NCBI RefSeq assembly: GCF_030682935.1
Contig: NZ_JAUXNA010000140.1
Span: 1 to 54,463, forward strand
DNA: 54,463 bases
From: Polaromonas sp.
GTDB lineage: Bacteria; Pseudomonadota; Gammaproteobacteria; Burkholderiales; Burkholderiaceae_C
Reading direction: 5' to 3'
In this document: positions 42,935 through 51,223 of the stretch, piece by piece
How positions within the stretch are numbered: the stretch's first letter is position 1
How the letters are laid out: each line of letters begins with the position of its first letter
Notes under the pieces: model-generated
Databases searched by the model: none
What the model was told of the DNA's origin: nothing
Seen by the model: only the letters and a program-made list of their open reading frames with translations
Position numbers and translations under genes: made by a program

Positions 42935-43841
42935 CGGCATCGCGGTTTCGCTGCGCGGCGTGACCAAGCATTACGGCCCGCTGCATGCGGTCGACGGTGT
43001 CGATCTGGACATTCAGCGCGGCGAAATCTTCGGCCTCATCGGGCACAACGGCGCGGGCAAAAGCACGCTGTTCAAGATGATGCTCGGACTGGTACCGGTT
43101 ACGGCGGGCGAGATTCTGGTGGGCGGTGCGCAGGTAGCCGGGCGCGGCTTTCGCGCGGCGCGACGCCACCTGGGTTACCTGCCCGAAAACGTCGTGCTCT
43201 ACGACAACCTGAGTGGCCTTGAAACCCTGCGTTTTTTTGCCCGCCTCAAGCACGCGCCGCTGGCCCAGTGCGCGCCAGCGCTCGAGCGCGTCGGCCTGGC
43301 GCATGCCGGGTCGCGCCCGGTGCGCGAGTATTCCAAGGGCATGCGCCAGCGCCTGGGTTTTGCGCAGGCGCTGCTGGGCTCGCCGCAGGTGCTGTTTCTT
43401 GACGAGCCCACCAACGGCCTGGACCCGCAGGCCATCCGCGACTTCTATGCCACGCTGCGCGGCCTGCAGAGCGAGGGTGTGACCATCATCATTACCTCGC
43501 ACATCCTGGCCGAACTGCAGGAGCGGGTGGGGCGCCTGGCCATCATGTCGGCCGGCAAGCTGCAGGCCGTGGGTAGCGTGCAGGCCTTGCGCGAACAGAC
43601 GCACATACCGCTGGTGTTTGAGTTGCGGCTGGACGCCGCTGATGCGCCGGCCGTGGCGCAAGCGCTGCTGCAATCAGTCGGCGTTGCGCCGGAACCCATG
43701 GCAACGGGCCTGCGCCTGCGCTGCCCGCGCGAATCGAAGATGGCCGTGCTCGCGGCGCTGGCGCCGTTTGGCACGCGCGTGCTCGACGTGAAGATGCAGG
43801 AACCGTCGCTCGAAGATGTGTTCTTCGGATTTTCCGATTGA
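42909..43841 (+). CDS. nosF: NosF, ABC ATPase
   Basis: This 310-residue ABC ATPase has Walker A GHNGAGKST, the signature YSKGMRQRLG and Walker B VLFLDEPTNGLDP, with an H-loop ITSHI. It powers NosDFY, which supplies sulfur and/or copper for CuZ assembly. A GGAG at 42897-42900, eight bases before the GTG at 42909, fixes an unusual GTG start inside the 3' end of nosD; the upstream in-frame starts lie within nosD and lack a Shine-Dalgarno. Confidence 0.94.
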   Translation: MASIFPVNNGIAVSLRGVTKHYGPLHAVDGVDLDIQRGEIFGLIGHNGAGKSTLFKMMLGLVPVTAGEILVGGAQVAGRGFRAARRHLGYLPENVVLYDNLSGLETLRFFARLKHAPLAQCAPALERVGLAHAGSRPVREYSKGMRQRLGFAQALLGSPQVLFLDEPTNGLDPQAIRDFYATLRGLQSEGVTIIITSHILAELQERVGRLAIMSAGKLQAVGSVQALREQTHIPLVFELRLDAADAPAVAQALLQSVGVAPEPMATGLRLRCPRESKMAVLAALAPFGTRVLDVKMQEPSLEDVFFGFSD

Positions 43842-43851
43842 AGGAGCACCC

Positions 43852-44667
43852 ATGGAACTGACGCAAATTTTCACGATCGCCGCCAAGGAATTTCGCGACC
43901 GCATGCGCAACCGCTGGGTGCTGGCGGTGGCGCTGGTGTTCACCGTGTTTTCGCTGGTGATCGCTTATTTTGGCGGTGCGCAGCAGGGCACGGTCGGCTT
44001 TCGATCGATCGAATTCACCATCGCCAGTTTGGTCAGTCTGGTGATCTACCTGATTCCGCTGATCGCGCTGCTGCTGGGCTTTGACGCCATCGTCGGCGAG
44101 CGCGAACGCGGCTCGCTCGACTTGCTGCTGGCGCTGCCCATCACGCGGCTGGAGCTGCTGCTGGGCAAATACCTCGGTCTCGCGGCAGCGCTCACGCTGT
44201 CCACGCTGGCGGGCTTTGGCCTGGTGGCGGTGCTGCTTTACAGTCAGTTCAGCTGGGCCGGGCTGTACCACTATGTCGGCTTCATGATCAGCTCGGTGCT
44301 GCTGGGCCTGGCATTCCTGAGCCTCGCCGTGCTGGTGTCGGTGGTGGCGCGCGACCGCACGCGCGCTTCGGGGCTGGCGATTGCGATGTGGTTTTTCTTT
44401 GTGTTGGTGTTCGACCTGCTGCTGCTGGGCGCGCTGGTCGGCACGGGCGGCGCCTACGGCGGCGAGGCCTTCGCCTATATGCTGCTGCTCAACCCCGCGG
44501 ATGTGTTTCGCATCCTCAATGTGTTTTCGCTCGAAGATGTTCGCACCCTGTATGGCCTGGCCAGCATCGTGCCGCCCGCCCTGGCCAAGCCCTGGCTGAT
44601 GGGCGCGGTCATGCTGGCCTGGATTATTGTGCCGCTTGCGCTGGCACGCTGGAGATTCAAATCATGA
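43852..44667 (+). CDS. nosY: NosY, ABC permease
   Basis: This 271-residue membrane protein has about six hydrophobic segments, from RNRWVLAVALVFTVFSLVIA to the terminal MLAWIIVPLALARWRFKS. It carries the conserved EREALxSLDLLLALP-like coupling segment (ERERGSLDLLLALPITRLEL). It forms the transmembrane part of NosDFY. An AGGAG six bases upstream supports ATG 43852. Its stop overlaps the nosL start (ATGA). Confidence 0.94.
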   Translation: MELTQIFTIAAKEFRDRMRNRWVLAVALVFTVFSLVIAYFGGAQQGTVGFRSIEFTIASLVSLVIYLIPLIALLLGFDAIVGERERGSLDLLLALPITRLELLLGKYLGLAAALTLSTLAGFGLVAVLLYSQFSWAGLYHYVGFMISSVLLGLAFLSLAVLVSVVARDRTRASGLAIAMWFFFVLVFDLLLLGALVGTGGAYGGEAFAYMLLLNPADVFRILNVFSLEDVRTLYGLASIVPPALAKPWLMGAVMLAWIIVPLALARWRFKS

Positions 44668-45215
44668 GCTACACCTGTTCCTGCCGCCGCCGCCAACTGC
44701 TGGGCCTGGCCGCGCTCGCCTCGCTGGGGGCACTGGGCGGCCTGGCCGCTTGCGGTGACCGGCCCGGCGATGCCCGGGCGCTGGCGCCGGTGGAGATCGG
44801 CGCGGCCACCTCGTGCGAGCTCGACGGCATGCTGCTGGCCGACTACCCCGGCCCCAAGGCGCAGATCCACTACGCCGGCGCTGCCGCGCCGGTGTTCTTT
44901 TGCGACACGGTGGAATTGTTCAACATGCTGCTGCGGCCCGAGCAGGTGCGCAAGGTGCTGGCGGTGTACGTGCAGGACATGGGCCAGGCCGACTGGGAGC
45001 AGCCGCGCGGCCACTGGATCGACGCCAGGACCGCCGTCTATGTGCCGGGCAGCAAGCGCCACGGCTCGATGGGGCCCACCATTGCGAGCTTTGCGCAGGA
45101 AGCCGACGCCGCCAGGTTTGCCGTCGAGTACGGCGGCAAGGTGCGGCGCTTTGCAGACATCAGGCCCGACATGGTCGACCTGAGCGGCGGCGCACTGCAC
45201 GACTCGCGGATGTAA
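44664..45215 (+). CDS. nosL: NosL, lipoprotein copper chaperone
   Basis: This 183-residue lipoprotein has an RRR-containing signal (SCRRRQLLGLAALASLG) with lipobox LAAC (Cys30) and the NosL domain: TSCELDGMLLADYPGPKAQI, then VFFCDTVELFNML and WIDARTAVYVPGSKRHGSMG. NosL binds Cu(I) for CuZ assembly. Its metal motif here is C51-x-x-D54-G-M56, with Asp where the second paralogue has Cys. Translational coupling to nosY is shown by ATGA. Confidence 0.93.
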   Translation: MSYTCSCRRRQLLGLAALASLGALGGLAACGDRPGDARALAPVEIGAATSCELDGMLLADYPGPKAQIHYAGAAAPVFFCDTVELFNMLLRPEQVRKVLAVYVQDMGQADWEQPRGHWIDARTAVYVPGSKRHGSMGPTIASFAQEADAARFAVEYGGKVRRFADIRPDMVDLSGGALHDSRM

Positions 45216-45222
45216 GCGCGCC

Positions 45223-45843
45223 ATGGAACTGCCCTGCCGGCACACCTCACCGCAGGTGCTGCGCGCGCTGGTGTTCGGCGCCATCGCCCTGGCGCTGTGG
45301 GTGGTGCCGACCGTGCAGCAAGCGCTGGCGCCCGCCGCATCTCCGGCTCTGGCGCCCGATGTCTGCGTGGTCGCGCCGCCGACGCCGTACGACCCGGCAT
45401 TGGGTCAGCCGCTGGCCGCGCCGCGCGCCGTGCCTGCCGATGCGCGCTGCCCGGTCTGCGGCATGTATCCGGCGCGCTCGCCCGACTGGGCCGCGCAGGT
45501 GATCTTTGCCCATGGCGATGCCCAGTTTTTCGACTCGCCCCTGAGCCTGTTCATGTACTTGCAGGACGTGGGCCGCTACACCCGCGGCCATCGCGCGGAC
45601 GAGATCGTCGCCAGCTATGTCACGGATGTCGACAGCGGACGCTGGATTTCTGCCAGCAGTGCCATTTATGTTCACGGCTCGTCGGCCATGGGACCCATGC
45701 GAGCGGGCAATCTACCCGCATTCGCCGAAGCCGTTGCGGCACAGCGCTTTGCGAGCGCGCGCGGCGGGGTGCTGCTGCGCGCCTCCGACATCGGCCCCGA
45801 CTTGCTGCAGCGCCTCAGTGGTGGGATCTCTCACAGGCATTGA
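45223..45843 (+). CDS. Second NosL-like protein (CxxCGM type)
   Basis: This 206-residue NosL-family paralogue starts 7 bp after nosL. It has an N-terminal membrane anchor (LVFGAIALALWVVPTVQQAL) instead of a lipobox, then CPVCGMYPARSPDWAAQVIF (Cys76, Cys79, Met81), FDSPLSLFMYLQDVGRYTRG and IYVHGSSAMGPMRAGNLPAF. A second copper chaperone with a different ligand set, possibly for the CuA site or a distinct copper donor, is suggested by the context. The function is inferred. Confidence 0.87.
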   Translation: MELPCRHTSPQVLRALVFGAIALALWVVPTVQQALAPAASPALAPDVCVVAPPTPYDPALGQPLAAPRAVPADARCPVCGMYPARSPDWAAQVIFAHGDAQFFDSPLSLFMYLQDVGRYTRGHRADEIVASYVTDVDSGRWISASSAIYVHGSSAMGPMRAGNLPAFAEAVAAQRFASARGGVLLRASDIGPDLLQRLSGGISHRH

Positions 45844-45937: not shown

Positions 45938-46606
45938 TCAGCGGCAGGCTTGCAGCGTCTTGTCTGCAAGCTGCGGTTTGAGCGCTTCGAGTTGGGCCTT
46001 CAGTGCGGCATCGACCGAGGGCAGTCTGAGCATCTGGCCGTTCACTTCGGGCAGCTCCAGCACCACCCTGGCGGTGCGCACGCCGCGCTGGGCGACTTTG
46101 GTCAACTCACTTTCAGCGTCGTCCCGGCTGCTAAAGTGGCCCAGTGACAGGCCGGGCCTGAGCGCCGGATTGATCAGCGGCCCGACCGACAGGCCCAGCT
46201 GGCGCAACTCGCTGCGTTTTTTGGCCAAAGATTCTTCGCTGCTGTATTTGCCCATATAGACAATCCAGCGCTCCGGCGCCTGGCTGCTTTCAAGCGCCCA
46301 GCTGCCTGCGGGCAGGCTGCTTTGCAGGCGGGGGCGCAGTGCCTCGGCCTGCTCATCGGTAAAAAGGCCGGCCTGCAGGCATTCGGTGGGGGCGGGGCGC
46401 ACCGCTGCAGAAGGCGGGTTGCCCTGCGCTTGCCCGGCTTCGTTGGCACTCAGCAGGCGCATGGCTTCGGGCCGGATCTGCTGCGCCAGGCGCTGCGGCT
46501 CCGACAGGGTGGCCGGGGCAAAACCGTAGGCCGCCAGCAGGCCTTGCGTCCAGGCCCAGTAGCCGGCGTTGGCCAGCAGCAGCGCCAGCACCAGCAGCCT
46601 CAGCAT
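45938..46606 (-). CDS. SPOR-domain-like protein
   Basis: This 222-residue protein has an N-terminal membrane segment (LVLALLLANAGYWAWTQGLL) and a C-terminal region similar to SPOR (peptidoglycan-binding) repeats: WIVYMGKYSSEESLAKKRSE and GHFSSRDDAESELTKV. It lies directly downstream of birA, overlapping it by 7 bp, as is common in betaproteobacteria. In many relatives, type III pantothenate kinase (coaX) lies between them, but no coaX is seen here. Confidence 0.8.
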   Translation of the reverse strand: MLRLLVLALLLANAGYWAWTQGLLAAYGFAPATLSEPQRLAQQIRPEAMRLLSANEAGQAQGNPPSAAVRPAPTECLQAGLFTDEQAEALRPRLQSSLPAGSWALESSQAPERWIVYMGKYSSEESLAKKRSELRQLGLSVGPLINPALRPGLSLGHFSSRDDAESELTKVAQRGVRTARVVLELPEVNGQMLRLPSVDAALKAQLEALKPQLADKTLQACR

Positions 46607-47487
46607 GGAGGCGCTGCCGTGGTGGCTGAAACGGGCCGCACGCTGACTTCGGAGCTGGTGATTTCTTTCATGCCAGCCGCAGTATGCACCAGCAGGGCGC
46701 CGTTTTCGCCGACGCCATGGGCAGTGCCCTGGGTGCCGTCCGACAGCTGCACGGCCCGGCCTGCGAGCACATCGCGCGCGGCAAAGCGCGCCTGAAACGG
46801 GGCAAAACCAAAGTGCTCGAAGGCCTGCACGGCCTGCACCAGCGGCGGCAGCACGCGCAGCAGCGTGGCGGCCGCGTCAAGCTCGGGGTGCAAGTCCTGC
46901 AGGCAGCCCGGCGGGATGGCGGCCATGGCGGGCGTCGCTTCCGAAGGCGCGGGAAGCTCAAGCGCCCGGATGTTGATGCCGACACCGATCACCACATAGC
47001 GCAGGCCTTCCCAGCTGGCGGTTTCCACCAGAATGCCGGCCAGCTTGCGCTCGCCGCCCTCGCCGTCCTTGGCGCTGGCCGGCCCGCACAGCCACAGGTC
47101 GTTGGGCCATTTCAGGCCAATCCGGGTCGGGCCGGTGTTGAGGGGGGCCAGGCTTTCGGCCAGGCTGATGCCCACCACCAGCGACAGGCCCGCCCAGTCG
47201 GCGGGCTGCAGGCACAGGCCCAGCGAAAACGTCAGGCTGTCCCCGCGCCGGCTTTGCCAGCTGCGGCCCAGCCGGCCGCGCCCGGCGCTTTGCTGCTCGG
47301 CCACCAGCAGCAGCGGCTCGGGCTGGGGCTGCGCGCTGGCGCTGCCCCTGAAGCGCCGCATCAGCTCGCTGTTGCTGGAGTCGACCTCGGGCAGCACCTC
47401 GACCGTGAAACCGGGCAGGGCGGGCGCCAGGGCCTCCCAGACGGCTTCGGCGGGCCAGCGGATGGGGGATGTCAGGGAATTGGTCAC
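46600..47487 (-). CDS. birA: Biotin--[acetyl-CoA-carboxylase] ligase
   Basis: This 295-residue enzyme attaches biotin to BCCP of acetyl-CoA carboxylase. Motifs are EQQSAGRGRLGRSWQS (biotinyl-AMP loop), GLKWPNDLW and KLAGILVETAS, followed by a C-terminal domain with VGENGALLVHT. There is no N-terminal HTH, so this is the monofunctional type and does not repress biotin genes. A GTG at 47487 (VTNSLTSPIRWPAEAVW) is the probable start; the open frame extends upstream without similarity. Confidence 0.93.
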   Translation of the reverse strand: MTNSLTSPIRWPAEAVWEALAPALPGFTVEVLPEVDSSNSELMRRFRGSASAQPQPEPLLLVAEQQSAGRGRLGRSWQSRRGDSLTFSLGLCLQPADWAGLSLVVGISLAESLAPLNTGPTRIGLKWPNDLWLCGPASAKDGEGGERKLAGILVETASWEGLRYVVIGVGINIRALELPAPSEATPAMAAIPPGCLQDLHPELDAAATLLRVLPPLVQAVQAFEHFGFAPFQARFAARDVLAGRAVQLSDGTQGTAHGVGENGALLVHTAAGMKEITSSEVSVRPVSATTAAPPC

Positions 47488-47509: not shown

Positions 47510-48043
47510 TCAAGCCTTGGGGCTTTGTTTCTTGCCGGACTTCTTTTTGTCCTTGGGCGCCAGCAGCGTGCCCCGGCAGTTTGGGGCGCCGCACCAGCAG
47601 GGGTAGTCGGCCAGCAACTTGGGGGTGTATTTGGCGTCAATGATCAGGCCGTAGTCGTAAAACAGCTCTTCGCCCGCCTTGATGTTGCGCAGCGCCTTGA
47701 TGAAAACGCGCCCGCCGTCCTCGTCGGCTTCGCAGTTGGGGGCGCAGCTGTGGTTGATCCAGCGCGATGAATTGCCGCCCACCTTGGCATCGATCACATG
47801 GTCTTCGTCGATGTGAAAGTAAAACGTGTGGTTGGGATTCGCCGGGTCGTGCGGGTGGCGGCGCAGCGCGTCTAGCCAGCTGATGACCTCGCCCACATAT
47901 TCAATCAGCGTCTCGCCTTCGGCCAGGTCCTGCAGGGCAAACACGCCCTTGCCGTGCACGCCTGACAGGCGGGTTTGAATGCGCCGGCCATCGCTGCCCG
48001 GCGCGGTCGGTGAAGGGGCTGCAGAGGCCTTGATTTTTGACAC
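47510..48043 (-). CDS. SET domain protein with post-SET motif (putative lysine methyltransferase)
   Basis: This 177-residue protein is a near-minimal SET methyltransferase: SGVHGKGVFALQDLAEGE, then NHSC...NC (97-104), GEELFYDYG (124-132) and the post-SET CWCGAPNC (149-156). It ends in a Lys-rich tail. SET enzymes use SAM to methylate protein lysines, chiefly histones in eukaryotes, with rare bacterial members such as chlamydial NUE. Start is GTG 48043. It diverges from topB across 207 bp, so the two share a promoter region. Its substrate is unknown; TopB's Lys/Ala-rich tail is a candidate. Confidence 0.9.
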   Translation of the reverse strand: MSKIKASAAPSPTAPGSDGRRIQTRLSGVHGKGVFALQDLAEGETLIEYVGEVISWLDALRRHPHDPANPNHTFYFHIDEDHVIDAKVGGNSSRWINHSCAPNCEADEDGGRVFIKALRNIKAGEELFYDYGLIIDAKYTPKLLADYPCWCGAPNCRGTLLAPKDKKKSGKKQSPKA

Positions 48044-48250
48044 GGCGTTTTTTTTGGTATGGTTAATTCATGCAGGTGCGCGTGGGCGGGCATGCGCACC
48101 CGCGAGCGCTTGCGCGCGAGAAGTTGTATTGTAGTGAGGCGCCCGGAGCGCCCCCGGTAGGGATTTATCAGCGTGCCCGATGAAAAAATCGTGGCTACGG
48201 AGAGCGGGGAAATTTTCCCCGCTGGTGTAGAAAAATTTGAAGAAGTACTT

Positions 48251-51223
48251 ATGAAAACTCTGGTCATTGCAGAAAAGCCTTCGGTGGCACAAGACATTGT
48301 GCGTGCCATCACGCCCACGGCGGGCAAGTTTGAAAAGCACGACGAGTACTTTGAAAGCGACGACTGGATCGTCACCTCGGCGGTCGGCCACCTGGTCGAA
48401 ATCCAGGCGCCCGAAGAGTTTGACGTGAAACGCGGCAAGTGGAGCTTTGCCAACCTGCCGGTGATTCCGCCTTACTTTGACCTCAAACCGATGGACAAAA
48501 CCAAGACGCGGCTGAACGCCATCGTCAAGCTGACCAAGCGCAAGGACATTGGCGCCATCGTCAATGCCTGCGATGCGGGCCGCGAAGGCGAGCTGATTTT
48601 CCGGCTGATCCAGCAGTACGCCAAGAGCAAACACCCGGTCCAGCGGCTGTGGCTGCAGTCGATGACGCCGGCCGCGATTCGCGACGGCTTTGCCTCGCTG
48701 CGCAGCGACGCGCAGATGCAGCCGCTGGCCGACGCGGCGCGCTGCCGCTCGGAAGCCGACTGGCTGGTCGGCATCAACGGCACGCGGGCCATGACGGCCT
48801 TCAATTCGCGCGACGGCGGTTTCTTTCTGACGACCGTGGGCCGGGTGCAGACGCCCACGCTGTCGGTGGTGGTCGAGCGCGAAGAAAAAATCCGCAAGTT
48901 CGTCAGCCGCAACTACTGGGAAATCCACGCCACGTTTGCGGCCGAAGCCGGTGAATACAGCGCCAGGTGGTTTGACCCCAAATGGAAAAAGGCCGCGGCC
49001 AACGCCGACAATGCCGAGCCCGATGCCGAGCTCAGGGCCGACCGGGTCTGGACCGAGCCCGAGGCGCGGGCGATTGCCGATGCGGTGCGCGGCCAGAGCG
49101 CCACGGTCACCGAGGAATCCAAGCCCACCACGCAGGCCGCCGGGCTGCTGTTTGACCTGACCTCGCTGCAGCGCGAAGCCAACGGCAAGTTCGGCTTTTC
49201 GGCCAAGGCCACGCTGCAAATTGCGCAAAGCCTGTACGAGCGCCACAAGGCGCTGACCTACCCGCGTACCGATTCCCGCGCGCTGCCCGAGGACTATGTG
49301 CCGGTGGTCAAACAGACTTTTGAAATGCTGGCCGACAGCGGCATGCGGCATCTGGCGCCGCATGCGCTGACGGCGCTGCAGGGCAACTACATCAAGCCGA
49401 CCAAGCGCATTTTTGACAACGCCAAGGTCAGCGACCACTTTGCCATCATCCCCACGCTGCAGGCGCCCAGCGGCTTGAGCGAGGCCGAGCAAAAGATTTA
49501 TGACCTGGTGGTGCGCCGCTTCATGGCGGTGTTTTTCCCGAGCGCCGAGTACCTGGTCACGACCCGAATTTCACTGTCAGTCGGTCACAGCTTCAAGACC
49601 GAGGGCAAGGTGCTGGTCAAGCCGGGCTGGCTGGCGATTTACGGCAAGGAAGCGGCCGAAGAAGTGGCTGACGCCAAGGAAGGCGACAAGGGGCAAAGCC
49701 TGGTGCCCGTCAAGCCCGGCGAGCGCGTGCGCGCCGAAGCGGTGGACGCCAGGGGCCTGAAAACCCGGCCGCCGGCGCGCTACTCTGAAGCGACCTTGCT
49801 GGGCGCCATGGAAGGCGCCGGCAAAACCATTGACGACGATGAGCTGCGTGAAGCCATGCAGGAAAAAGGCCTGGGCACGCCAGCCACGCGCGCCGCCACC
49901 ATCGAGGGCCTGATCGCCGAAAAATACATGCTGCGCGAAGGCCGCGAGCTGATCCCGACGGCCAAGGCCTTTCAGCTCATGACGCTGCTGCGCGGCCTGG
50001 GCGCCGAAGACCTGTCGCGCGCCGAGCTGACGGGCGAGTGGGAATACAAGCTGGCGCAGATGGAGCAGGGCAAGCTCAGCCGGGAAACCTTCATGGCCGA
50101 GATTGCGGCCATGACCGAGCGCCTCGTCAACAAGGCCAAGGGCTACGACAAGGACTCCATTCCCGGTGACTACGCCACGCTGCAAGCGCCCTGCCCCAAT
50201 TGCGGCGGCGTCATCAAGGAAAACTACCGGCGCTACACCTGCACCGGCAAAGCAGGCGATCCCAACGACCACGGCTGCGGCTTTTCGTTTGGCAAAACCC
50301 CGGCAGGCCGGACCTTTGAAACCGCTGAAGTCGAGCAGTTTTTGCGCGACCGCAAAATCGGCCCGCTGGAGGGCTTTAGGTCCAAGGCGGGCTGGCCTTT
50401 CACCGCTGAAATGGTGATCAAGTTCGACGAGGAAACCAAGAACTACAAGCTCGAATTCGATTTTGGCGACGACAAAAATGCCGAGTCGGGCGAGATTGTG
50501 GACCTGGGCGACCAGCCATCGCTGGGCGCCTGCCCCAAGTGCGGCAGCGCCGTGGTTGAACTCGGCAAAAACTACATCTGCGAAAAGTCTGTGCCTACGC
50601 TGGCGCAGCCGACGCCGAGCTGCGACTTCAAGACCGGCCAGGTCATCCTGCAGCAGCCGATAGAGCGCGAGCAAATGGTCAGGCTGCTGGAAACCGGCAA
50701 GACCGATCTGCTCGACAAGTTCGTGTCCATGCGCACACGCCGCCCCTTCAAGGCCATGCTGGCCTGGGACAAGGCGGCGGGCAAGGTGAACTTCGAGTTT
50801 GCGCCGTCCAAGTTTCCGCCGCGCAAAACGGCGGCTGCCAAGTCGGGCACCATCAAGACGCCGTTCGGCAAAACCGTGGCCGTCAAAGCCGCCGGCGACA
50901 AGCCGGCGGCCCAAAAGGTGGCCGCCAAAAAAGCCGCGCCCAAAGCCGCAGCGGCCAAAACCGCCAAGCCCAGGGTGGCCCGCGTCAGCACCCCCGGCGC
51001 CGGTCTCAAGCCCAGCGATGCGCTGGCCGCAGTGATTGGCAGCGAGCCGGTGGCGCGCACCCAGGTGATCAAGAAACTGTGGGACTACATCAAGGCCGAG
51101 GGCCTGCAGGACGCCACCAACAAGCGCGCCATCAATGCCGATGCCAAACTGCTGGCGGTGTTTGGCAAACCGCAGGTGACGATGTTCGAGCTGGCCGGGA
51201 TTGTGGGCAAGCACCTGAGTTGA
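48251..51223 (+). CDS. topB: DNA topoisomerase III with Lys/Ala-rich linker and C-terminal SWIB domain
   Basis: This 990-residue type IA topoisomerase has Toprim motifs (AEKPSVAQDI, CDAGREGELIFRL) and active-site tyrosine Y337 in ALTYPRTDSRALP. Zinc-ribbon segments (CPNCGG, CPKCGS) follow the catalytic core. Residues of about 856-916 form a Lys/Ala-rich, histone-H1-like linker (PAAQKVAAKKAAPKAAAAK). The last 75 residues form a SWIB/MDM2 fold (GLKPSDALAAVIGSEPVART, VIKKLWDYIKAEGLQD, KLLAVFGKPQVTMFELAGIV). It relaxes negative supercoils and decatenates DNA. ATG 48251 was chosen at MKTLVIAEKPSVAQD, the conserved family start. Confidence 0.96.
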   Translation: MKTLVIAEKPSVAQDIVRAITPTAGKFEKHDEYFESDDWIVTSAVGHLVEIQAPEEFDVKRGKWSFANLPVIPPYFDLKPMDKTKTRLNAIVKLTKRKDIGAIVNACDAGREGELIFRLIQQYAKSKHPVQRLWLQSMTPAAIRDGFASLRSDAQMQPLADAARCRSEADWLVGINGTRAMTAFNSRDGGFFLTTVGRVQTPTLSVVVEREEKIRKFVSRNYWEIHATFAAEAGEYSARWFDPKWKKAAANADNAEPDAELRADRVWTEPEARAIADAVRGQSATVTEESKPTTQAAGLLFDLTSLQREANGKFGFSAKATLQIAQSLYERHKALTYPRTDSRALPEDYVPVVKQTFEMLADSGMRHLAPHALTALQGNYIKPTKRIFDNAKVSDHFAIIPTLQAPSGLSEAEQKIYDLVVRRFMAVFFPSAEYLVTTRISLSVGHSFKTEGKVLVKPGWLAIYGKEAAEEVADAKEGDKGQSLVPVKPGERVRAEAVDARGLKTRPPARYSEATLLGAMEGAGKTIDDDELREAMQEKGLGTPATRAATIEGLIAEKYMLREGRELIPTAKAFQLMTLLRGLGAEDLSRAELTGEWEYKLAQMEQGKLSRETFMAEIAAMTERLVNKAKGYDKDSIPGDYATLQAPCPNCGGVIKENYRRYTCTGKAGDPNDHGCGFSFGKTPAGRTFETAEVEQFLRDRKIGPLEGFRSKAGWPFTAEMVIKFDEETKNYKLEFDFGDDKNAESGEIVDLGDQPSLGACPKCGSAVVELGKNYICEKSVPTLAQPTPSCDFKTGQVILQQPIEREQMVRLLETGKTDLLDKFVSMRTRRPFKAMLAWDKAAGKVNFEFAPSKFPPRKTAAAKSGTIKTPFGKTVAVKAAGDKPAAQKVAAKKAAPKAAAAKTAKPRVARVSTPGAGLKPSDALAAVIGSEPVARTQVIKKLWDYIKAEGLQDATNKRAINADAKLLAVFGKPQVTMFELAGIVGKHLS

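What the first reader, a model, noticed from the sequence alone, without database searches (positions are those of the whole stretch)
47510..51223. SET methyltransferase divergent from a SWIB-tailed topoisomerase with a histone-like linker
A minimal SET/post-SET enzyme shares a promoter region with TopB, which carries a Lys/Ala-rich, H1-like linker of about 60 residues followed by a SWIB domain. Chlamydia is known to pair a SET enzyme (NUE) with histone-like proteins and SWIB topoisomerases. The SET enzyme may methylate the TopB linker lysines and so tune DNA binding.
Basis: partly seen in the sequence, partly recalled or inferred. Interest (0 to 1): 0.75.

Follow-up and report, generated by a model that had tools for sequence, protein, structure and literature searches.

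The report
SET enzyme paired with lysine-rich tails
A bacterial relative of histone-methylating enzymes sits beside a DNA topoisomerase with a histone-like tail, and related bacteria that lost the enzyme also lack paired lysines in that tail, which suggests, but does not prove, that the enzyme marks such tails.

Summary
Confirmed: a canonical SET/post-SET protein (47510-48043, -) is divergent from TopB (ATG 48251), which ends in a K/A-rich linker and SWIB; TopB is a known family (PRK14724). SET was found in 378 of 397 family genomes, between birA and topB in 76 of 76 evaluable named loci and 20 of 20 more; G494 is an exception. SET also neighbours TopB without SWIB (34 loci).

New: the TopB tail motif [AV]KK[AVTSPK] is in 109 of 116 SET+ and 0 of 15 SET- family genomes. 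A pre-stated held-out test gave 17 of 20 and 0 of 8, with only one new loss. The loss is not TopB-specific: AKK[AV]xAKK repeats occur in 24 of 27 SET+ but 1 of 15 SET- genomes; 11 of 20 array stretches read are H1-like or SWIB proteins. So TopB is probably one of several substrates of an intracellular lysine methyltransferase.

Against: family f6 keeps SET beside TopB without the motif; many SET-less families keep arrays; only about four independent losses, in small genomes. No methylation was measured.

The parts
47510..48043 (-). SET/post-SET protein, 177 aa, putative protein-lysine methyltransferase
   Evidence: PF00856 E 3.7e-25; best solved relatives KMT2/MLL SET domains by sequence and by predicted fold; motifs invariant in 32 homologues
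47576..47599 (-). post-SET CxCx4C (C149, C151, C156); with C100 a likely zinc site
   Evidence: invariant columns; the zinc role is recalled from SET enzymes
48044..48250 (.). 207-bp intergenic region between divergent SET and topB
48251..51223 (+). topB, DNA topoisomerase III of the PRK14724 type, 990 aa
   Evidence: NF011313 2014 bits, profile 1-988
50807..51004 (+). K/A-rich linker of TopB (66 aa, 13 K, one AKKA), proposed methylation target
   Evidence: weak match to H1-like NF038053 (E 0.0037, 17.5 bits, cut-off 80)
51005..51220 (+). SWIB domain of TopB
   Evidence: PF02201 E 2e-23
46600..47487 (-). birA (biotin ligase), 22 nt after SET, perhaps co-transcribed; neighbour, not claimed as part of the mechanism
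   Evidence: BPL_LplA_LipB E 5.1e-14; GTG 47487

Best explanation
The SET protein is an intracellular, housekeeping protein-lysine methyltransferase. Its substrates are lysine pairs in unstructured AKKA-type tails of DNA-binding proteins. In this family these would be HC2/H1-like proteins, the standalone AKKA-SWIB protein and the C-terminal tail of TopB; the SWIB-bearing TopB tail resembles a fused AKKA-SWIB protein. Methylation would keep the positive charge but change DNA contacts or block other lysine modification, and so tune how tightly these proteins hold DNA. Shown: gene order, domains, co-variation of SET with AKK motifs. Inferred: methylation, its sites, its effect.
For: SET is divergent from topB with birA behind it in 76 of 76 evaluable named loci, 9 of 9 and 20 of 20 further family genomes. 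TopB tail motif: SET+ 109 of 116, SET- 0 of 15; held-out 17 of 20 versus 0 of 8 (prediction in note). Simulation of independent evolution on the TopB tree: all SET- tips lacking the motif in 4 of 4000 runs (rates from all tips) or 0 of 4000 (rates from SET+ tips), a difference as large as observed in 0 of 4000 in both. Composition control: SET- tails with 8 or more K have the motif in 0 of 9 versus 4.0 expected after shuffling (p 0.0015), SET+ tails with 8-12 K in 40 of 43 versus 21.5. Genome-wide AKK[AV]xAKK: 24 of 27 SET+, 1 of 15 SET-. Order: 4 or more matches in 31 of 56 strong-SET versus 42 of 228 SET-less genomes. TopB is near SET in other families in other arrangements: convergent with about 10-70 bp between matches (f6, 3 of 3), same strand 1.5-1.6 kb (f19, 2 of 3), within 10 kb (f4, 6 of 8), while birA was not detected in 23 non-family loci. 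One f12 SET protein carries its own AKKAAPKK array (L171). The predicted fold resembles KMT2 histone lysine methyltransferases.
Against: No methylation data. The independent-pairs sign test cannot reach 0.05 with four pairs (median p 0.25). SET-less genomes are small and use fewer lysines in the TopB core (0.426 versus 0.545 K/(K+R)). f6, f46, most f12 and three of four f7 SET+ genomes have few or no AKK arrays; f17, f24, f29, f38, f49 and some f9 and f18 genomes have arrays without SET. Outside f1 the TopB tail motif is only weakly associated (SET+ 31 of 52, SET- 7 of 20). The motif was chosen after looking at the first set. SET is absent in several lineages, so it is not essential.
Confidence: 0.5

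Rival explanations
1. TopB is the dedicated substrate: the neighbouring SET methylates only the TopB linker and so tunes topoisomerase activity.
For: Conserved adjacency in the family and proximity in f6, f19 and f4; motif co-variation in the TopB tail; two SET+ genomes with no AKK[AV]xAKK repeat anywhere (G396, G358) still have the shorter motif in TopB (L133, L134).
Against: AKK repeats are missing genome-wide, not only in TopB, where SET is lost; f6 keeps SET beside TopB with almost no tail lysine.
Confidence: 0.1
2. Bystander: SET, birA and topB stay together by frozen gene order. SET loss and AKK loss are separate outcomes of genome reduction and a lysine-to-arginine drift in a few small genomes.
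For: The 15 SET-less genomes are 2.3-3.0 Mb and lower in core K/(K+R); only about four losses; sign test not significant; SET stays beside TopB in f6 without the motif.
Against: Six small SET+ genomes (2.3-2.6 Mb: G431, G403, G552, G369, G457, G305) have 10-26 AKK repeats, though two others (G376, G437) have one each; 28 of 30 SET+ genomes with core K/(K+R) no higher than the SET- maximum keep the TopB motif; shuffles that keep composition still show depletion.
Confidence: 0.25
3. The SET protein methylates something else, for example a ribosomal protein, or a small molecule like BurB, a SET enzyme that S-methylates methionine.
For: BurB shows that a bacterial SET fold can act on methionine (PMC12542666: abstract, introduction and the first part of the results read).
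Against: The 60 best solved sequences and 50 best solved folds shown are all eukaryotic histone lysine methyltransferases; co-variation with AKK tails is then unexplained. BurB's sequence was not compared.
Confidence: 0.1
4. The protein is a secreted nucleomodulin acting on eukaryotic histones, as claimed for BtSET, NUE and RomA.
For: Reviews describe BtSET of Burkholderia thailandensis as an H3K4 methyltransferase secreted by type III secretion (passages of PMC7819608; part of PMC3980110). The only NCBIfam match is to the effector AnkI/LegAS4, far below its cut-off (43.8 against 550 bits).
Against: SET is in 378 of 397 genomes of the family, at one chromosomal place between birA and topB in the loci examined, and the named members are mostly environmental genera (recalled). 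Secretion signals were not tested.
Confidence: 0.05

Closest known systems
cpnSET / NUE of Chlamydia with Hc1/Hc2 and topoisomerase I-SWIB
   Same: A SET enzyme in bacteria that also have HC2-type H1-like proteins (PF07382 hit in a family genome), a standalone SWIB protein and a topoisomerase-SWIB fusion; a chlamydial paper already suggests a chromatin-modifying complex from these parts (PMC6426960 passages); cpnSET is reported to methylate Hc1
   Different: Here the topoisomerase is type III (TopB) and the SET gene is its neighbour; NUE did not methylate Hc1 (PMC2904774 passages)
BtSET (Burkholderia thailandensis)
   Same: SET protein of the same order, reported H3K4 methyltransferase
   Different: Discussed as a host-directed effector in the passages seen; sequence not compared here, so orthology is untested
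Go1-SET of Methanosarcina mazei and MC1-alpha
   Same: Prokaryotic SET acting on the cell's own DNA-binding protein (named in a PMC3980110 table and a PMC10117894 reference title)
   Different: Archaeal, other substrate family; not compared here
PRK14724 / NF011313 DNA topoisomerase III
   Same: TopB matches it end to end with linker and SWIB
   Different: Nothing found; it is a member
BurB methionine S-methyltransferase
   Same: Small bacterial SET protein in Burkholderiales
   Different: Small-molecule substrate; not among the 60 best sequences or 50 best folds shown

Membership tests
SET-domain protein lysine methyltransferases with post-SET | SET fold with GxG, NHSC-type motif and catalytic tyrosine | tested here: met
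   PF00856; invariant G31, G33, N97, H98, C100, Y131 (roles recalled); fold match to KMT2
SET-domain protein lysine methyltransferases with post-SET | post-SET cysteines | tested here: met
   C149, C151, C156 invariant in 32 sequences
SET-domain protein lysine methyltransferases with post-SET | transfers methyl to protein lysine | not testable with these tools
   needs an enzyme assay
Topoisomerase III with SWIB tail (PRK14724) | full-length profile match over the curated cut-off | tested here: met
   2014 bits, cut-off 1088, positions 1-988
Histone H1/HC2-like proteins (for the TopB linker) | match to NF038053 or PF07382 over the cut-off | tested here: not met
   TopB 17.5 bits against NF038053 cut-off 80 and no PF07382 match listed; it is H1-like in composition only
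Histone H1/HC2-like proteins (for a free AKKA protein of family genome G564) | match to PF07382 or NF038053 over the cut-off | tested here: met
   PF07382 45.5 bits, cut-off 40; NF038053 66.5 bits is below its cut-off of 80
BurB methionine S-methyltransferases | closest relative is BurB | tested here: inconclusive
   BurB not among the 60 best sequence or 50 best fold matches shown; 131 and 140 sequence matches in all, the rest not shown
Secreted nucleomodulins | secretion and host nuclear targeting | not tested
   no secretion prediction was run

The most novel reading that the evidence does not exclude
Free-living Burkholderiales have a histone-tail-like lysine methylation system of their own: one SET writer acts on AKKA tails shared by HC2/H1-like, SWIB and topoisomerase III proteins. 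Related bacterial SET proteins now described as host-directed effectors could then be derived from this housekeeping writer.
Probability: 0.4. Interest if true: 0.85.

Novelty: new variant of a known kind. Interest (0 to 1): 0.62.

Why it matters
What bacterial SET enzymes do inside bacteria is open: the Hc1 result is disputed, and the reviews seen here discuss them mainly as effectors. The co-variation with AKK motifs names candidate substrates, sites and tractable hosts, so the question becomes directly testable. If true, bacteria would use lysine methylation of unstructured DNA-binding tails much as eukaryotes do.

Tried and rejected
Promoter/operator idea: the near-perfect palindrome at 48203-48223 upstream of topB was considered as a shared operator. 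It lies where, in several Polaromonas-type loci, a TlpA-like reading frame ends between SET and topB (L035, L043, L044, L046, L065; read by eye), so it is more likely a remnant and was dropped. Palindromes of arm 8 or more occur in 43 of 111 intergenic regions; of the 15 with arm 9 or more, only the window's and L038's share this sequence.

SWIB as the reason for the pairing: rejected, because SET stays beside TopB without SWIB in 34 family loci that I fetched as SWIB-less.

Apparent SET-less genomes G374 and G414 were set aside: their TopB lies at the start of a contig, and both keep the AKK motif, as a SET lost only in the assembly would predict. G347 and G671 gave no TopB and were not counted.

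BirA as functional partner: not pursued; birA was not detected in the 23 non-family loci examined (flanks of about 7 kb or less).

Papers: the searches listed no title or abstract that reports a SET-TopB link in Comamonadaceae; 'topoisomerase III' with 'SWIB domain' gave 0 papers. The library holds open-licence papers only, and listings were capped.

After the report check I fetched 20 more family loci and recounted.
Full report
What is there. The window is part of a Burkholderiales genome (G000 contig C165, 89% complete) whose nearest named relatives are Polaromonas and other Comamonadaceae (the best 80 of 572 confirmed matches). A 177-aa SET protein lies at 47510-48043 on the minus strand and is the only SET match in the genome. 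It has the complete SET domain (E 3.7e-25), and N97-H98-x-C100, Y131 and the post-SET cysteines are invariant in 32 homologues. An AlphaFold2 model (mean pLDDT 83.6) matches KMT2/MLL SET domains best, as does the sequence. Divergent from it, topB starts at ATG 48251. TopB is a full-length member of the known PRK14724 topoisomerase III family, with a 66-aa K/A-rich linker and a SWIB domain. birA follows SET at 22 nt.

Is the neighbourhood conserved? SET was found in 72 of 300 genomes of the order and in 378 of 397 of the family f1. Of 80 named loci fetched by SET, 76 reach topB, and in all 76 SET is divergent from topB with birA behind it (four loci have no topB). The nine other family loci agree. 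Twenty family genomes whose SET position had not been listed also agree, 20 of 20. Of the 21 SET+ genomes of the held-out set, 19 have SET in the TopB locus; in G545 TopB starts at a contig end, and in G494 neither SET nor birA is within 1.5 kb, a real exception. The order holds where TopB lacks SWIB (34 loci), so SWIB is not the reason. Twelve of the 76 named loci have more than 300 bp between SET and topB, and in several a TlpA-like frame sits there, so a shared promoter is not essential.

Outside the family (positions). f6 has SET and topB convergent, about 10-70 bp between matches, in 3 of 3 genomes. f19 has them on the same strand 1.5-1.6 kb apart in 2 of 3 (third on separate contigs), f4 within 10 kb in 6 of 8 (two on separate contigs), f7 in 1 of 4 at 8 kb, f9 at 17 kb (one genome), f31 from about 12 kb to over 100 kb. 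In f10, f12, f46 and two of three f38 genomes they lie on different contigs. TopB was found in 52 of 62 non-family SET+ genomes and in 20 of 52 non-family SET-less genomes that I picked in handle order. birA was not detected near SET in 23 non-family loci.

Does SET track the tail? The TopB tail is usually K/A-rich with or without SWIB. In seven family genomes birA abuts topB with no SET between. Their tails lacked AKK doublets, so I defined the motif [AV]KK[AVTSPK] after looking: SET+ 94 of 98, SET- 0 of 7; outside the family only SET+ 31 of 52 and SET- 7 of 20. I then wrote down a prediction for the family, about 95% of SET+ and no SET-, and searched it again. Held-out genomes gave 0 of 8 for SET- (G671 had no TopB) and 17 of 20 for SET+, somewhat under the prediction (21 SET+ genomes picked by me, mostly small, one without a complete tail). 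Seven of the eight held-out SET- genomes belong to genera already seen; only G663 is a new loss. On a FastTree tree of 131 TopB cores SET changes state at least four times; SET+ tails carry the motif in 109 of 116, SET- in 0 of 15. Independent pairs: 3.4 of 4 the same way, none opposite, a test that cannot reach 0.05. A simulation of the motif evolving independently of SET, root fixed as motif present, gave all SET- tips lacking it in 4 of 4000 runs with rates from all tips, 0 of 4000 with rates from SET+ tips, and a difference as large as observed in 0 of 4000 in both.

Composition. SET- TopB cores use fewer lysines (K/(K+R) 0.426 versus 0.545; GC3 0.885 versus 0.857), and in genus g161 the tail has 0 or 1 lysine. 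But 28 of 30 SET+ genomes with core K/(K+R) no higher than the SET- maximum keep the motif; at or below the SET- median there is just one SET+ genome, and it lacks it. In SET- tails with 8 or more lysines, shuffling would give the motif in 4.0 of 9 and none has it (p 0.0015); in SET+ tails with 8-12 lysines 40 of 43 have it against 21.5 expected.

TopB or more than TopB? The DNA pattern for AKK[AV]xAKK, searched in 44 chosen family genomes, occurs in 24 of 27 SET+ genomes (none in G387, G396, G358), in 1 of 15 SET- genomes (a single match in G663), and in both assembly-gap genomes. I read 20 listed stretches with such arrays, from six SET+ genomes, one gap genome and G663. By eye seven are H1-like proteins with a common C-terminus and four are standalone SWIB proteins with an AKKA N-terminal tail; the rest include tails of proteins that look like sigma factors, phasins and a ribosome silencing factor. 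One H1-like protein was tested and matches HC2 (PF07382 45.5 bits, cut-off 40; NF038053 66.5, under its cut-off of 80). One AKKA-SWIB protein was tested and matches PRK14724 positions 854-988, linker included, so the SWIB-bearing TopB tail looks like a fused copy. This genome has such a protein too (C172). Not all relatives keep it: G090, G127 and G189 are SET+ with short SWIB tails, and G189 has no AKK[AV]xAKK match at all.

Across the order, 4 or more matches occur in 31 of 56 genomes with a strong SET match, 5 of 16 with a weak one and 42 of 228 without (Fisher p 9e-8 strong versus none; excluding f1, 24 of 46; within-family odds ratio 5.9, p 4.6e-4). These p values only partly allow for relatedness. 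Exceptions are many: f6, f46, most of f12 and three of four f7 genomes have SET with few or no arrays, and f17, f24, f29, f38, f49 have arrays without SET.

Interpretation. The best reading is a housekeeping lysine methyltransferase for AKKA tails, TopB being one target. The chemistry is inferred from the SET family and precedents: cpnSET on Hc1, contradicted for NUE (passages of PMC2904774, part of a section of PMC3980110), and BtSET on histone H3 (passages of PMC7819608). The methionine methyltransferase BurB (PMC12542666) is a warning that a SET fold alone does not prove lysine as substrate.

Noticed in passing
48170-48250: Upstream of topB lies a near-perfect palindrome (48203-48223) and a short in-frame extension where, in several Polaromonas-type loci, a TlpA-like thioredoxin frame ends between SET and topB; the gene seems lost in the window.
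   Followed up: partly
L171:6780-7469: An f12 SET protein carries its own N-terminal AKKAAPKKVAPKK array in front of the SET domain, that is enzyme and candidate substrate in one chain.
   Followed up: partly
L228, L229, L230: In family f6 SET and topB are convergent and almost touching, although the TopB tail there has almost no lysine.
   Followed up: partly
L322 and L333: The N-terminal region of what looks, by eye, like the primary sigma factor also carries a K/A-rich stretch with AKK motifs.
   Followed up: no
L282, L284: In G552 (one contig) topB appears split into two adjacent frames.
   Followed up: no
43816-45843: Nearby genes look like an ABC permease and NosL-like parts of a nitrous oxide reductase cluster (by eye, from the ORF list).
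   Followed up: no
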